DNA of 64,000 nt from an uncultured Erythrobacter sp. Lineage in GTDB: Bacteria; Pseudomonadota; Alphaproteobacteria; Sphingomonadales; Sphingomonadaceae. This document shows positions 2,013 to 47,306 of this stretch, piece by piece. The position numbers and the translations under genes are program-made. The stretch covers positions 1,116,001 through 1,180,000 of the forward strand of contig CANKYI010000001.1 of the NCBI GenBank assembly GCA_947488085.1, read 5' to 3'. The notes below the pieces were generated by a model. It saw only the letters and a program-made list of their open reading frames with translations, was not told where the DNA came from and ran no database searches. Every line of letters starts with the position of its first letter. Position 1 is the first letter of the stretch.

Positions 2013-5000
2013 TCAGTTATAATAGTCCTGCAATGACCGGACTTCAAGCTGTGAGGGTTGAATCGCCTGAATCGCCGCCGCTGCCGCGCATGATGCAGCA
2101 GCGGTTGTGTAATACGGAACCTTCTTTTCAAGCGCGGTTGCACGGATCGATTTGGAGTCCAAAAGTGACTGCCAGCCTTCTGTAGAATTAAAGATCAACG
2201 CGACCTCACCATCAATAATCCGATCAACAATATGCGGCTGCCCCTCCGCGACCTTGTTTACCTTTTTAACCGCTAGGCCTTGTTCAGCAAGATAGCTTTG
2301 GGTGCCCGAAGTGGCGATAATCGTGAAACCGGCGTCGATCAGGTTTTTAACAGCCGCGACGATCACCGGCTTGTCCGAATTCTTGACCGAGACGAACACC
2401 GTGCCTTCCCGCGGTAAGGTCATGCCCGCACCCATTTGCGATTTTAGGAATGCCGCTTCGAACGTGGTGTCGATCCCCATAACCTCGCCTGTCGACTTCA
2501 TTTCGGGGGTCAGCACCGGATCGGCGCCGGGGAAGCGGGCAAAGGGGAACACAGCCTCTTTGATCGCCATGTAATCGAACTCGCGCTTAAACGCTTCGAA
2601 AGTCGAGAGCTTCTCGCCTGCCATCACGCGCGCTGCGATCTTGGCGACGGGTTGACCGATGGCCTTTGCGACGAAGGGGACGGTGCGACTGGCGCGCGGA
2701 TTAACTTCGATCAGGTAAACTTCGCCATTCTTAACTGCGAACTGCACATTCATCAGACCGCGCACACCCAAAGCTATTGCTAGCGCCTCAGCCTGACGCT
2801 CCATTTCAGCGATAATGTCCTCATCGAGCGAATAGGCCGGTAACGTGCAAGCGCTGTCGCCAGAGTGGACACCAGCCTCTTCGATATGCTGCATTACGCC
2901 CGCAATACGGACCTCGTCGCCATCGCAAAGCGCGTCGACATCGCACTCAATCGCATCACGGAGGTATTGGTCGACCAGCACCGGACTGTCGCCTGACACG
3001 TTCACAGCGGTTTTGATGTAGTCGTCCAGCTGCGCTTCGGAATCGACAATTTCCATCGCTCGCCCGCCAAGCACAAATGACGGGCGCAGAAGAACCGGAT
3101 AGCCGATGCGTGCAGCTACAGCCGCAGCCTCATCGCGCGTATAGGCAATGCCATTGTCAGGTTGCTTCAGGCCAAGTTTGTCGACCAGCTTCGCAAACCG
3201 CTCACGGTCCTCGGCGTGATCAATGGCATCAGGCGACGTGCCAAGGATAGGGATACCCGCATCTTCAAGCGCCTGAGCGAGCTTCAACGGGGTCTGACCG
3301 CCAAATTGCACAATCACCCCAACCAGCTCGCCCGATTGCTGTTCCACGCGCAGAATCTCTAGCACGTCTTCGGCGGTCAAAGGCTCAAAATACAGGCGAT
3401 CTGACGTATCGTAGTCAGTTGAAACGGTCTCCGGATTGCAATTGACCATGATCGTTTCATAGGCCGGGCCATTCCATTCCTCGCCCAATGCAAAACAAGC
3501 ATGGACACAGCAATAGTCAAACTCGATCCCCTGACCAATACGGTTGGGCCCACCGCCAAGTATGACGATCTTTTTACGTTCGCTTGGCGCAGCCTCGCAT
3601 TCCGCCTCACCAAAACTGGGCGCTTCATAAGTCGAGTACATGTACGGCGTAATCGCCTCGAACTCGGCCGCGCAGCTGTCGATCCGTTTGAACACCGGCA
3701 ACACACCAAGCTTCTGGCGCAACTCTCGGACTTCCTCCTCGCTGGTAGCCCCTGCCATGGCTTGCAAGGCATCATGCAACAGCCCAGAGCGCCGTGCCTG
3801 AGTTTCGGCCATCCCGCCTGCAACACCGACAGAACGAACCGCTAGGGTCGCCAATCGTTTGTCGGAAAAGCCCATCGATTTCAGTCGCCGCAAGCCCGCC
3901 GCGTCTTGGGGAAGACCTTCGGTGGAGACCTCGCGCTCTGCATCAATGATCGCTTCAATTTGGCGCAGGAACCACGGGTCGTATCCGGTGACGGCCTGAA
4001 TATCTTCTAGTGCCAACCCTTCGCGAAACGCCTGTCCCACTTGCAGCAATCGGTCCGGTGTCCGGCGAGAGATCGCAGCGTTGATCACATCGCGCGACAC
4101 CCCTTCCAATGCAGGCATGCGGTTAAATCCATCGAGGCCCGTCTCCAGCCCGCGCAGTGCCTTCTGCATCGATTCTGCGAAATTGCGGCCAATCGCCATC
4201 ACTTCGCCCACGGATTTCATCGCCGTGGAAAGCGCCGGTTGCGCGCCCTTGAATTTCTCAAAAGCAAAGCGCGGAATCTTGGTCACGACATAGTCAATGG
4301 TCGGCTCAAAGCTGGCAGGGGTCGCTCCGGTGATCTCATTCGTGATCTCATCCAGAGTGTATCCCACAGCCAATTTCGCCGCGACGCGTGCAATGGGAAA
4401 CCCGGTGGCTTTGGAGGCGAGAGCAGAGGAACGCGACACACGCGGGTTCATCTCGATCACGATCAAGCGGCCATCGGCGGGGTTCACCGCGAATTGAACA
4501 TTCGAGCCGCCGGTCTCAACGCCAATCTCACGCAGCACATTAATGCTGGCGGTGCGCATGATTTGATATTCTTTGTCGGTCAGCGTGAGTGCCGGGGCGA
4601 CGGTAATCGAGTCGCCGGTATGCACGCCCATTGGATCGACATTCTCGATGGAGCAAATGATGATGCAATTGTCCGCGCGGTCGCGCACAACCTCCATCTC
4701 ATATTCTTTCCAGCCGAGCAGCGATTCCTCGATTAGAACTTCGGTAGTCGGAGAGGCATCGAGCCCCTCGCGTACGATCTTTTCAAACTCCGCCTTGTTA
4801 TAGGCAATGCCGCCGCCAGTGCCGCCAAGGGTGAAGCTGGGGCGGATAATCGCTGGAAGGCCTGTCCGCTCCAACACTTCGCGCGCTTCATCGACTGTGT
4901 TTGCGACGCCCGAACGCGCGCTTTCCAACCCGATGGAATCCATTGCATCGCGGAAACGTTGGCGATTCTCCGCCTTGTCGATCGCATCCGCCTTCGCCCC

Positions 5001-42672: not shown

Positions 42673-42703
42673 GGGTTGTGGACCATGAACAAGTCCACAA
42701 CCC
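42673..42703 (+). promoter_or_regulatory. Perfect 11-bp hairpin enclosing the start codon of the DUF4329 gene
   Basis: GGGTTGTGGAC-CATGAACAA-GTCCACAACCC; ATG in the loop. Confidence 0.65.
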
Positions 42704-43341
42704 CCAATGGTTCAGGCCCCAACGCTTCGGGCCCCTTCGGCTCCGGCCCGCTAGGCTCAACCAAGATCATCTTCATCATCATCGCCATCGCGTGGGTGGT
42801 GATCGTCGCGCGTGCTTACATGAATGTGAAAGGCACCGACGCTCTCGTCGCGGTCGTGCCGCAATCAGAGGTTCAAGCCTTCGCCCGAAACGAGCTGGAC
42901 GCGTTGCAAAATCCCAGTTTTACCGGCGATAAAGAGCTGTGCGGGATCATCTTTGAAACCAGCGAAGGCGAGTTGGGCGTATCTCGACCCACTAGCGGCG
43001 ACGAAGCGAGCTGCGACATCAGTTTCTTTGATGAGCCCGGCATGGTGCCCGTCGCCAGCTTTCACACCCACGGCAAACATTCGGTTCAATATGACGGCGA
43101 AGTGCCGTCATTAGTCGATATTCAAAGCGATGTAGCGACCGGTATGGATGGCTATGTTGCGACACCGGGCGGGCGGTTTTGGCATATCGACCATAAGCGG
43201 GCGACCGCGCGCATGGTCTGCGGACCGGGCTGCATCACCCAAGATCCGAATTATCAGCCCTGCAATGATGAAGCGATTGCACAAAACTACACAATCGCCG
43301 AACTGCGCCAGCGCTTTAATGGCGATGACGCTTTTTGCTGA
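42685..43341 (+). CDS. DUF4329 (JAB-like) membrane-anchored protein
   Basis: Gly/Ser/Pro-rich N-terminus, one TM segment, 'ELCGIIFETSEGELGVSRPTSG...VASFHTHGKHS'. Confidence 0.7.
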   Translation: MNKSTTPNGSGPNASGPFGSGPLGSTKIIFIIIAIAWVVIVARAYMNVKGTDALVAVVPQSEVQAFARNELDALQNPSFTGDKELCGIIFETSEGELGVSRPTSGDEASCDISFFDEPGMVPVASFHTHGKHSVQYDGEVPSLVDIQSDVATGMDGYVATPGGRFWHIDHKRATARMVCGPGCITQDPNYQPCNDEAIAQNYTIAELRQRFNGDDAFC

Positions 43342-43424: not shown

Positions 43425-43538
43425 ATGAATTTGCCTGTTCGCGAATGCTGCAAGGGGGACAGCGAACCCGCGAAAAAATGGGCGTGACCGAGGGCACTAG
43501 GAGGAACGGTCCCCGGCCACACCCAAAATGCACACCCG

Positions 43539-43955
43539 TCAGGCAGCGGGCGCACAAGCTGAAGCTGAACAATCGCTTGCGGCGCAGCACGCAGCGGCAC
43601 AGGCCGATGCAGAACAAGCTGATGCGTCACATGCGGCGGCACAGGCTGATGAAGAGCAAGCTGATGCGTCACAGGCAGCGGCACAAGCCGACGCAGCACA
43701 TGCATTGGCAGCACAAGCCGCTGCTGCACACGCAGCCGCTTGACGCTCAGCGCGCGCCTGACGGCGGGCTTCACGAGCTGCACGGCGTTCGGCTGCACTC
43801 GTGGTGCTAGCGCTGCTGCGGCTGCTGCTGGAGAAGCCGCTTGGGCCGCAAGGCGCATCTGCCAGCGCTGGTGCGCCGGCGCTTGCTGCGGCAAGGCCGC
43901 CTGCAACCATAAGCATCTTCGCAAGGTTCATCGGGGTCTTTGAAGTCTGTGTCAT
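43539..43955 (-). CDS. Exported Ala/Cys-repeat protein, unknown function
   Basis: Signal peptide '...MLMVAGGLAAASAGAPALA', then Cys every 4-5 residues ('ACAAACDASACSSSACAAACDASACSAS'); SD AGAGAGG before ATG 43955. Confidence 0.7.
   Translation of the reverse strand: MTQTSKTPMNLAKMLMVAGGLAAASAGAPALADAPCGPSGFSSSSRSSASTTSAAERRAAREARRQARAERQAAACAAAACAANACAASACAAACDASACSSSACAAACDASACSASACAAACCAASDCSASACAPAA
43573..43698. repeat. Three in-frame tandem ~42-bp units within the Cys-repeat gene
   Basis: Two clear units CAAGCTGATGCGTCACAxGCxGCGGCACA... start at 43615 and 43657, preceded by a more diverged one. Confidence 0.7.
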
Positions 43956-44007: not shown

Positions 44008-44057
44008 ATTGGCACCCCAGTCATAGGGGGGTCAGGGGGGACGACCGGGGTGCCAAT
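44008..44057 (-). promoter_or_regulatory. C-loop hairpin 2 (between the YHS and Cys-repeat genes)
   Basis: Minus strand ATTGGCACCCCGGTC-GTCCCCCCTGACCCCCCTAT-GACTGGGGTGCCAAT; 15-bp stem with one G.U. Confidence 0.65.
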
Positions 44058-44071
44058 TCGGGGGTTAGATT

Positions 44072-44551
44072 CTAATCGCCGAAACGTTTGCCATCGGGAA
44101 TTTGGGTCCAGGCAGCGTTTGCCTTTTCAATGAAGCCGGGAATGTCTTCGAACCACATGCGTTGAACCTGACGGTTCACGTTGAGGTAGAGTTTGCCATC
44201 CACGATCTTGTAAACTTGCGGATCTCCCGGTGCGAGCGAACCGCGGCTCATCGCCCAGGCGCAGTGGCCACCATATTGGGGGGCATAGGCATCGGGGTCA
44301 GCCTGAAACGCATCGGCATTTTCTTGGCTTGCGAAATGGAATTCTGCGCCGTCATGTTCGACGGTGAAACGCGCGCTGCCCATTACCGGAACACCGTCGC
44401 CGCGAAAGTAGCTGACGCTGTCATATCCGCCGAGAGCCACGTTGCCTTGGTTCACGCCAACATAGACGCCGCCATCGGCCTGGGCTGGTGCAGTCATCGC
44501 AAGTGGCGCTGCGAATGCTGCGGCTGCAATGAGGAAATATTTGAGTTTCAT
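44072..44551 (-). CDS. Exported YHS-domain-like protein
   Basis: Signal peptide; 'ALGGYDSVSYFRGDGVPVMGSARFTVEHDGAEFHFASQENADAFQADPDAYAPQYGGHCAWAMS'. Confidence 0.85.
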   Translation of the reverse strand: MKLKYFLIAAAAFAAPLAMTAPAQADGGVYVGVNQGNVALGGYDSVSYFRGDGVPVMGSARFTVEHDGAEFHFASQENADAFQADPDAYAPQYGGHCAWAMSRGSLAPGDPQVYKIVDGKLYLNVNRQVQRMWFEDIPGFIEKANAAWTQIPDGKRFGD

Positions 44552-44638
44552 CGGGGGTCTCCTAAGTACTCTTGCCTGATCAATTCTGTTTCGTGCGGCG
44601 GGCCACCCGGCCCTCTCAAAGGAGGGGTAAGGGGGTAA

Positions 44639-44665
44639 CCAACCGAATAGGGGGACTTCGGTTGG
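44639..44665 (-). promoter_or_regulatory. C-loop hairpin 3 (upstream of the YHS gene)
   Basis: Minus strand CCAACCGAA-GTCCCCCTA-TTCGGTTGG; perfect 9-bp stem. Confidence 0.55.
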
Positions 44666-44844
44666 GGGTCCTTGAGAGCTGCCAAGTGGCCGCGCACATC
44701 TGTCAGTTCGCGGCGATCACTGAATTGGTGACAGGTCGGTCAAAAAAAATTGAAAAAAGTTCTGTTATGCCCGTGTGATCCGCGCACTCTCGACACTTCG
44801 GGCGCAATCGGTCACAGCGATTTGACGCAATAAAGCAGGGGCAT

Positions 44845-46554: not shown

Positions 46555-47121
46555 TTAGTCCTGAAAATGCTCATCAGGTGAGTGGGTTGGGTAGTTGGTG
46601 TCACCGCTGGCGATGAAGCCGGGGATGTCTTTTTCCCAGTTTTCCTGAACCGCTTCGTTGAAGTTCAAGTAAAGCGTGCCGTCGACGATCTCGTAAACTT
46701 CTGGATCGCCTGGTGCCAGCGCATCATTCGCGCCGATGGCCCATGCGCAGTATCCGCCGTAAGCTGGTGCATACTTGCTTGGATCTTCGACGAATGCGTC
46801 TGCATTCTCTGCATTTGCAAAGCGATAATCGAACCCGGCATAACGCACGGTGAATTCTTCTGCGCCTTCAACAGGTACGCCGTCGCCAGTGAAGTAGCTA
46901 ACGACGTCAAAACCCGAAACGGCCAGCGTGTCGCCTTTGGTTGCGGTGTGAACAGGCCCAGTCGCTTCGCCGCCGAGATCGGCGTACAATACGGTGCCTT
47001 CAACTTGTTCAGTAGCAACCATGCTGTCGCCTTCGGGAGCGGTTTCAGCTGGTGTGCCGCAAGCAGCAAGCGTGGCGACAAGGGCGATTGCAGTCAGGGG
47101 TGCAAAAATTGACTTTTTCAT
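46555..47121 (-). CDS. Lipoprotein YHS-domain-like paralog
   Basis: Lipobox 'TLAAC'; 'VSGFDVVSYFTGDGVPVEGAEEFTVRYAGFDYRFANAENADAFVEDPSKYAPAYGGYCAWAIG'. Confidence 0.85.
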   Translation of the reverse strand: MKKSIFAPLTAIALVATLAACGTPAETAPEGDSMVATEQVEGTVLYADLGGEATGPVHTATKGDTLAVSGFDVVSYFTGDGVPVEGAEEFTVRYAGFDYRFANAENADAFVEDPSKYAPAYGGYCAWAIGANDALAPGDPEVYEIVDGTLYLNFNEAVQENWEKDIPGFIASGDTNYPTHSPDEHFQD

Positions 47122-47306
47122 AGGGGTATCCTCCTTAAGTAAAACATTCTCACCAGCGGCCTGAGTGCCGGTGACATGACGCAGTTCGCAAGCGCGCGCT
47201 CACAAGTTACAGCTTTTTTTGCGAAGAGTGAGATTTTATTCGATTTTGTCCGATCGAGTGGTTTACCCCGCTTGCAAGCCTGCGGGTTTTCGGCAAAGAC
47301 GACATC

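What the first reader, a model, noticed from the sequence alone, without database searches (positions are those of the whole stretch)
43539..43955. Exported Ala/Cys-repeat protein built from a 14-residue (42-bp) repeat
After a signal peptide and an Arg-rich linker the protein is almost only Ala, Cys, Ser and Asp, with Cys every 4-5 residues (ACAAACDASACSxS repeated). The 42-bp units are visible in the DNA. I recognise no family. Possible roles are metal binding, disulfide scaffold or peptide precursor; co-location with a YHS protein (a domain often linked to metals) makes metal handling worth testing. Function is inference.
Basis: partly seen in the sequence, partly recalled or inferred. Interest (0 to 1): 0.7.

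Follow-up and report, generated by a model that had tools for sequence, protein, structure and literature searches.

The report
Exported Cys-every-fifth protein with YHS partner
This is a real bacterial gene for a small, apparently secreted protein carrying a cysteine at almost every fifth position; it is encoded together with a YHS-domain partner behind what looks like a metal- or oxidant-stress promoter, and it probably acts as a periplasmic thiol sponge, most likely for copper-like metals, although no binding has been shown.

Summary
In detail: window 43539-43955 (-) encodes a 138-aa, apparently exported protein whose tail is almost only Ala, Cys, Ser and Asp. The true unit is not 14 residues but a pentad. 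Across 30 distinct Erythrobacter homologs, 79% of Cys gaps are exactly 5 (8% after shuffling). Relatives are built as (SACAA)n, (CAANP)n or (CNPCAAKK)n. Codon tests show strong purifying selection in this frame; CAANP repeats differ only at third codon positions.

The gene is second in a conserved operon with a YHS_seleno-domain protein (29 of 29 neighbourhoods read). The operon has an ECF16-like promoter (TGTCACC-N16-CGAA), a covarying 5' leader RNA, a covarying hairpin between the genes and a terminator. Six relatives that kept the promoter lack both genes. A second YHS gene nearby and the genome's bufferin operon carry canonical or near-canonical sigma-F promoters.

Nearest known kinds are 'Cys-every-fifth RiPP peptide CefA' (NF038108; one syntenic homolog passes its cut-off, the window protein does not) and MNIO-linked CxxxxC precursors. 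No maturase lies beside the operon, so membership is not claimed. Best reading: an exported thiolate-array metal buffer. Rivals: an oxidant sink, or a RiPP precursor modified in trans.

The parts
43539..43955 (-). CYS gene, 138 aa, exported Cys-every-fifth protein
   Evidence: ORF and ribosome site; pN/pS 0.04/0.38 against nearest homolog
43860..43955 (-). signal peptide (residues 1-32, MTQTSKTPMNLAKMLMVAGGLAAASAGAPALA), the most conserved part of the protein
   Evidence: sequence; alignments A1 and A4; no SignalP available, so the cleavage site is inferred
43731..43787 (-). Arg-rich linker (residues 57-75); the only confidently modelled stretch, a helix
   Evidence: AlphaFold pLDDT 84-91 around residues 51-70; absent in several homologs
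43554..43730 (-). Cys pentad-repeat domain (residues 76-134, 14 Cys)
   Evidence: spacing test; TRF 42-bp unit
43473..43524 (-). intrinsic terminator after CYS, GGGTGTGGCCGGGG...CCCTCGGTCACGCCC + T run; similar sequence left behind in relatives that lost the operon
44009..44056 (-). hairpin between YHS1 and CYS with conserved C-rich loop (CCCCTGACCCCC)
   Evidence: 14 pairs, 95.6% paired, 11 with compensatory changes, 0/500 shuffles
44072..44551 (-). YHS1: exported YHS_seleno-domain protein (NF041384), first gene of the operon
   Evidence: NCBIfam 146 bits over cut-off 70; directly upstream of CYS in all neighbourhoods read
44549..44700 (-). structured 5' leader RNA of the operon, long closing stem with C-rich loops
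   Evidence: 15 closing pairs, 95.8% paired, 0/500 shuffles; covariance model hit 85.6 bits, by construction for the window; no Rfam match
44707..44733 (-). ECF16-like promoter TGTCACC-N16-CGAA of the YHS1-CYS operon
   Evidence: same architecture in 20 of 20 distinct upstream regions; extended motif has one exact match in the genome
46555..47121 (-). YHS2: second YHS_seleno-domain protein, probable member of a related stress regulon (not part of the operon)
   Evidence: NCBIfam NF041384, 137.7 bits
47185..47211 (-). near-canonical sigma-F/ECF16 type promoter of YHS2 (TGTAACT-N16-CGAA)
   Evidence: only two such sites in the 64-kb window, each upstream of a YHS gene

Best explanation
YHS1 and CYS form one stress operon. 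An ECF sigma factor of, or close to, the ECF16/sigma-F type starts a messenger whose 5' end folds into a long hairpin leader. CYS is exported by Sec; its pentad array then displays about 11-23 thiols at fixed spacing in the periplasm, where they bind soft metal ions (copper most likely) and keep them from doing harm. YHS1, with its invariant His-Cys pair, would load, unload or keep reduced the CYS thiols. Shown by sequence: coding, conservation of the Cys period, gene pairing, promoter type, RNA structures, joint absence. Inferred from established knowledge: export, co-transcription, stress induction. Not shown: metal binding, which metal, and what YHS1 does.
For: Cys is the one feature held while the rest of the mature domain drifts: 79% of 381 Cys gaps are 5, against 8% shuffled. 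CAANP units have zero differences at codon positions 1 and 2 and mostly about 0.6 at position 3. Mature regions have no Met and almost no His, so thiols carry the chemistry. The promoter has the sigma-F architecture (GTAACC-N16-CGAA, PMC3511200) except for one -35 base. YHS2 and the DUF2282 bufferin operon of the same genomes carry the canonical form. MNIO is present in 31 of 31 CYS+ genomes against 38 of 83 others. YHS1 and CYS lie together in all neighbourhoods read and are missing together in six relatives that kept the promoter. Bufferins are exported Cys peptides that sequester copper (PMC12452194).
Against: Fixed C-x4-C spacing is not a classical metallothionein motif (CxC, CxxC; my own knowledge). 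The -35 box is never the canonical GTAACC, and two genomes lacking NrsF carry TGTCACC before a YHS gene, so another sigma factor with another signal is possible. The MNIO link is confounded by descent: many genomes have MNIO without CYS, and CYS+ genomes are not one clade of the MNIO tree. YHS1 also occurs without CYS, with a YceI-like gene instead where read. AlphaFold gives no confident fold. Similar Cys repeats elsewhere are fused to cytochrome P460 or SoxA/TsdA cytochrome domains, which could point to redox or sulfur chemistry.
Confidence: 0.42

Rival explanations
1. Sacrificial thiol sink: CYS is a periplasmic oxidant scavenger (HOCl, peroxide, reactive sulfur). Its Cys are oxidised in place of other proteins and re-reduced, perhaps with YHS1. 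This would be the Cys counterpart of the Met-rich BcrX/MrpX peptides under ECF16 control.
For: ECF16 in Brucella drives a Met-rich repeat peptide against HOCl (PMC8315932); related promoter architecture here. Cys number varies freely, 11 to 23. Related Cys repeats neighbour a MerA-like flavoenzyme or sulfur transport gene and are fused to heme domains in other bacteria.
Against: A mere sink should not need exact 5-residue spacing or invariant CAANP units. No Msr- or Dsb-like recycling gene was recognised among the conserved neighbours.
Confidence: 0.22
2. RiPP precursor: the Cys pentads are modified before export, in trans by the MNIO-DUF2063 pair of the bufferin locus or by an unlinked radical SAM enzyme, giving a metallophore-like product.
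For: NCBIfam NF038108 'Cys-every-fifth RiPP peptide CefA' hits 10 of the 12 homologs scanned, one over cut-off (33.7 vs 30 bits). A CxxxxC family of signal-peptide precursors is linked to MNIO (PMC12452194), and many bufferin precursors are encoded away from MNIO. All 31 CYS+ genomes have MNIO.
Against: No maturase recognised among the conserved genes of the 29 CYS neighbourhoods. The only MNIO in the genome is on another contig with its own DUF2282 precursor; the nearest radical SAM gene is about 30 kb away. The window protein itself gives no NF038108 hit. The match may reflect composition alone.
Confidence: 0.2
3. Disulfide-linked structural protein of the envelope: evenly spaced Cys cross-link CYS to itself or to other proteins, as in keratin-like or cornifin-like proteins.
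For: Low-complexity Ala/Cys/Ser or Pro/Cys composition, even spacing, free change in repeat number; the only weak hits are to keratin, cornifin or sperm structural families.
Against: Those hits are far below cut-off and compositional. A stress-type promoter and YHS partner do not suggest a bulk structural role. The operon is missing in close relatives.
Confidence: 0.1
4. Low-complexity ORF without function, or the antisense frame is the true gene.
For: The opposite strand is also open; low-complexity repeats often give spurious ORFs.
Against: pN/pS 0.04/0.38 and 41 of 53 changes at third positions in this frame; no antisense frame does better, and the one that comes closest (0.07/0.28) is the frame that shares the wobble position. 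Conserved signal peptide, ribosome site, synteny.
Confidence: 0.01

Closest known systems
NCBIfam NF038108, Cys-every-fifth RiPP peptide CefA
   Same: Cys at every fifth residue in low-complexity sequence; hits to 10 of 12 homologs scanned, one over cut-off.
   Different: Window protein gives no hit; no maturation enzyme beside the gene; the match may be largely compositional. The definition text of CefA was not available.
MNIO-associated CxxxxC precursors (PMC12452194)
   Same: Signal peptide plus CxxxxC motifs; MNIO present in all CYS+ genomes.
   Different: Those genes sit next to MNIO, DUF2063 and DoxX genes; CYS sits next to YHS1 and far from MNIO. Their profile was not available for a test.
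Bufferins (DUF2282, Buf1) of the sigma-F regulon
   Same: Small exported Cys protein, related promoter, same genomes.
   Different: No sequence similarity; different Cys pattern (KCYGxxxAGKNDC); canonical GTAACC promoter; MNIO operon.
MrpX/BcrX methionine-rich peptides under ECF16
   Same: Repeat protein rich in an oxidisable sulfur residue, related promoter.
   Different: Met, not Cys; methionine sulfoxide reductase genes in the operon (PMC8315932).
Alphaproteobacterial (CNPCAAK)n proteins found here, alone or fused to cytochrome P460
   Same: Exported-looking low-complexity Cys repeats of Ala, Asn, Pro, Lys and Cys; L077 of the Erythrobacter family has the same CNPCAAKK unit.
   Different: Different signal peptide and neighbours (histidine kinase, DUF6969, sulfur transport, a cupredoxin-like protein by eye), no ECF16-like promoter found. 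Homology not shown.
YHS_seleno_dom proteins (NF041384)
   Same: YHS1 and YHS2 are members over cut-off.
   Different: No function is known to me for that family; the Sec/Cys position suggests redox or metal chemistry (inference).

Membership tests
NF038108 CefA | profile score over the curated cut-off (30 bits) | tested here: not met
   Window protein: no hit. Homologs with a hit score 17-26 bits, one (L070) 33.7 bits
NF038108 CefA | Cys at every fifth residue | tested here: met
   9 of 13 gaps in the window repeat domain, 79% in the family
NF038108 CefA | maturation enzyme encoded alongside (expected of a RiPP precursor) | tested here: not met
   Conserved neighbours are IlvB, IlvC, DUF4329, YHS1, LldD, I78, YHS2, LeuA; nearest radical SAM about 30 kb away
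MNIO-linked CxxxxC precursors | Sec signal peptide and CxxxxC motifs | tested here: met
   signal peptide by inspection only
MNIO-linked CxxxxC precursors | gene next to MNIO/DUF2063 | tested here: not met
   MNIO at G000:C2:146322, another contig
MNIO-linked CxxxxC precursors | match to the published CxxxxC profile | not testable with these tools
   Profile not held
Bufferins DUF2282 | Pfam PF10048 match | tested here: not met
   Not among the hits
sigma-F/ECF16 regulon | GTAACC-N16-CGAA upstream | tested here: inconclusive
   -10 and spacing met; -35 always one base off, GTCACC or GAAACC
Metallothionein-like metal buffer | binds metal through thiolates | not testable with these tools
   Needs protein
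YHS_seleno_dom (for YHS1) | NF041384 over cut-off | tested here: met
   146.3 bits vs 70

The most novel reading that the evidence does not exclude
A previously undescribed two-protein periplasmic system: a Cys-pentad array protein that works with a dedicated YHS_seleno-domain partner, made from one mRNA with two new structured RNA elements under an ECF16-like promoter. The array uses a C-x4-C geometry for metal or sulfur chemistry unlike metallothioneins, bufferins or copper storage proteins, and needs no post-translational modification.
Probability: 0.3. Interest if true: 0.8.

Novelty: new variant of a known kind. Interest (0 to 1): 0.62.

Why it matters
Exported Cys-repeat proteins appear in many bacteria but hardly any has a known job. 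This one comes with what the others lack: a fixed partner protein of a YHS family whose function is unknown, a promoter type that predicts the inducing stress, natural deletion relatives as controls, and RNA elements. It makes the role of both the Cys-every-fifth arrays and the YHS_seleno family directly testable with one operon deletion.

Tried and rejected
Antisense gene: rejected by codon-position changes and synteny. Slippage as the reason for the repeats' sameness: rejected, since CAANP units are identical in protein but differ at about 60% of third positions in three of four homologs tested (34% in the fourth). Fold search: not run, because both AlphaFold models are of low confidence (CYS pLDDT 56, YHS1 42). 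PDB by sequence: nothing for CYS, only E about 0.4 to a phenol hydroxylase component for YHS1. Rfam: no match for the leader or hairpin. Relatives outside the genus by protein search: only doubtful weak hits. NF038108 in other genomes of the phylum: mostly low-complexity frames. ECF16-like promoters upstream of the CNPCAAK genes: none found. MNIO co-occurrence as proof of modification: rejected, as the association is confounded by descent. Literature on Cys-every-fifth, CefA, or YHS with Cys repeats: nothing relevant found.

Full report
What is there. The minus-strand ORF 43539-43955 encodes 138 residues with a ribosome site, a typical signal-peptide-like start (NLAKMLMVAGGLAAASAGAPALA), an Arg-rich linker and a 63-residue tail of Ala, Cys, Ser, Asp, Asn and Pro. 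TRF finds the 42-bp unit as 2.6 copies at 43591-43700. Pfam, NCBIfam and PDB give no match for it.

Relatives. Contig titles of the relatives name Erythrobacter for nearly all of them, so the host genus is Erythrobacter or what is classified with it. Homologs were found in 31 of 114 genomes of the genus by my reading of the hits (the raw tally of 42 includes weak, mostly signal-peptide-only hits), giving 30 distinct proteins. The signal peptide is nearly constant while the mature part is rebuilt: (SACAA)n in the window's group, (CAANP)n in another, CC-containing forms, and (CNPCAAKK)n in L077. What stays is the Cys period: 79% of 381 Cys gaps are exactly five, against 8% in shuffled sequences, and no shuffle of the window's tail reached its value in 20000.

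It is a gene. Against its nearest homolog 41 of 53 nucleotide changes fall at third codon positions (pN 0.04, pS 0.38); other pairs agree, and no antisense frame does better, the nearest being the one that shares the wobble position. In CAANP homologs 8 to 15 units are identical in protein, with no difference at codon positions 1 and 2 and 0.34 to 0.64 at position 3. Selection, not slippage, keeps every residue of the pentad.

The operon. In all 29 neighbourhoods read (some are two records of one genome), a YHS_seleno-domain protein (YHS1, NF041384) lies directly upstream on the same strand, between ilvB-ilvC (usually with DUF4329) and, where present, the LldD-like gene, an I78-like lipoprotein gene, YHS2 and leuA. 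Of 114 genomes, 30 have both CYS and a YHS1; ten have a more distant YHS1 without CYS, and in the two of these that were read a YceI-like gene stands in its place (Pfam checked on one). One genome, G147, has lost only YHS1 and keeps a CYS with few Cys. Six relatives lacking CYS that were read at this place keep the promoter, some the leader, and in most of them the CYS tail or terminator sequence can be recognised, but neither gene: the two genes tend to be lost as a unit. Three further relatives read there (G024, G006, G044) also lack both genes; their scars were not examined.

Promoter. All 20 distinct upstream regions hold G(TC or AA)ACC-N16-CGAA followed by a block like ATGTGCGCGGCC; the extended motif has a single exact match in the genome. 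Caulobacter sigma-F uses GTAACC-N16-CGAA and answers chromium and cadmium (PMC3511200); Brucella ECF16 uses TGTAAC-N17-CGAA and answers HOCl (PMC8315932). In these same genomes the DUF2282 bufferin operon has the canonical form in nearly every locus, and so does YHS2 in most loci (the window has TGTAACT). In the 64-kb window the relaxed pattern occurs twice, each time upstream of a YHS gene. Because YHS1 never has the canonical -35, and two genomes without NrsF (G002, G113) carry TGTCACC before a YHS gene, a related but different ECF sigma factor may read it.

RNA. The operon's leader (44549-44700) folds into a long stem that closes the 5' end: 15 pairs, 95.8% paired, 0 of 500 shuffles as good, while slid controls fall to 28-52%. 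A second hairpin with a conserved CCCCTGACCCCC loop sits before CYS: 14 pairs, 11 with compensatory changes, 0 of 500. G-U pairs on the operon strand favour RNA over DNA palindromes. Most CAANP-type loci lack the second hairpin. Neither is in Rfam. Their roles (stability, attenuation, translation control) are open. The stretches aligned were chosen by eye and the rows are related, so the shuffle counts are not probabilities.

Wider kin. A CNPCAAK pattern search hit 23 of 385 alphaproteobacterial genomes (17 genera; control pattern 0), giving short exported-looking repeats and long ones with a C-terminal cytochrome P460 domain. Neighbours include a histidine kinase, a MerA-like flavoprotein, DUF6969 and a sulfur transporter; a further bacterium of the same phylum has (NPCAA)n fused to a SoxA/TsdA cytochrome c domain. 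Whether these share ancestry with CYS is not shown.

Known kinds. NCBIfam holds 'Cys-every-fifth RiPP peptide CefA' (NF038108): it hits most homologs weakly and one, L070, over its cut-off, but not the window protein. A 2025 survey describes MNIO-linked CxxxxC precursors with signal peptides (PMC12452194). The window's genome has one MNIO, in a sigF-nrsF-DoxX-DUF2282 bufferin locus on another contig. MNIO occurs in 31 of 31 CYS+ genomes and 38 of 83 others, but the MNIO tree needs several changes of the CYS label, and many MNIO+ genomes lack CYS, so this is a hint only.

Mechanism. The mature protein offers only thiols (no Met, almost no His). With export, a promoter related to metal and oxidant stress, and a YHS partner with an invariant His-Cys pair, the likeliest job is binding soft metals in the periplasm. 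An oxidant or sulfur sink and a RiPP modified in trans remain open. AlphaFold found no confident fold for the repeats, as expected of a domain that folds only on binding metal or forming disulfides, but equally of any low-complexity chain.

Noticed in passing
window 44549-44700 (-): Covarying structured leader RNA of the YHS1-CYS operon, absent from Rfam; candidate new RNA family in Erythrobacter.
   Followed up: partly
window 44009-44056 (-): Covarying hairpin with a conserved C-rich loop between YHS1 and CYS, missing in most CAANP-type loci.
   Followed up: partly
window 46555-47211 (-): Second YHS_seleno protein (lipoprotein-like) with a canonical sigma-F type promoter in most relatives: YHS proteins as likely members of the ECF16 regulon.
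   Followed up: partly
L127-L146, L147-L162: Alphaproteobacterial (CNPCAAK)n exported-looking proteins, often fused to a cytochrome P460 domain, near histidine kinase, DUF6969 or sulfur transport genes.
   Followed up: partly
L181:1381-2034: (NPCAA)n repeats fused to a SoxA/TsdA-type cytochrome c domain in another bacterium of the phylum.
   Followed up: no
L081:745-1404, L082: YceI-family gene in the place of CYS in genomes with a more distant YHS1.
   Followed up: partly
L280 about 3140-3230: Deletion scar: promoter followed directly by the CYS 3' end and terminator, apparently across a short TGTGCGC repeat.
   Followed up: no
window 42685-43341 (+): DUF4329 protein (PF14220) convergent with the operon and conserved beside it in most loci.
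   Followed up: no
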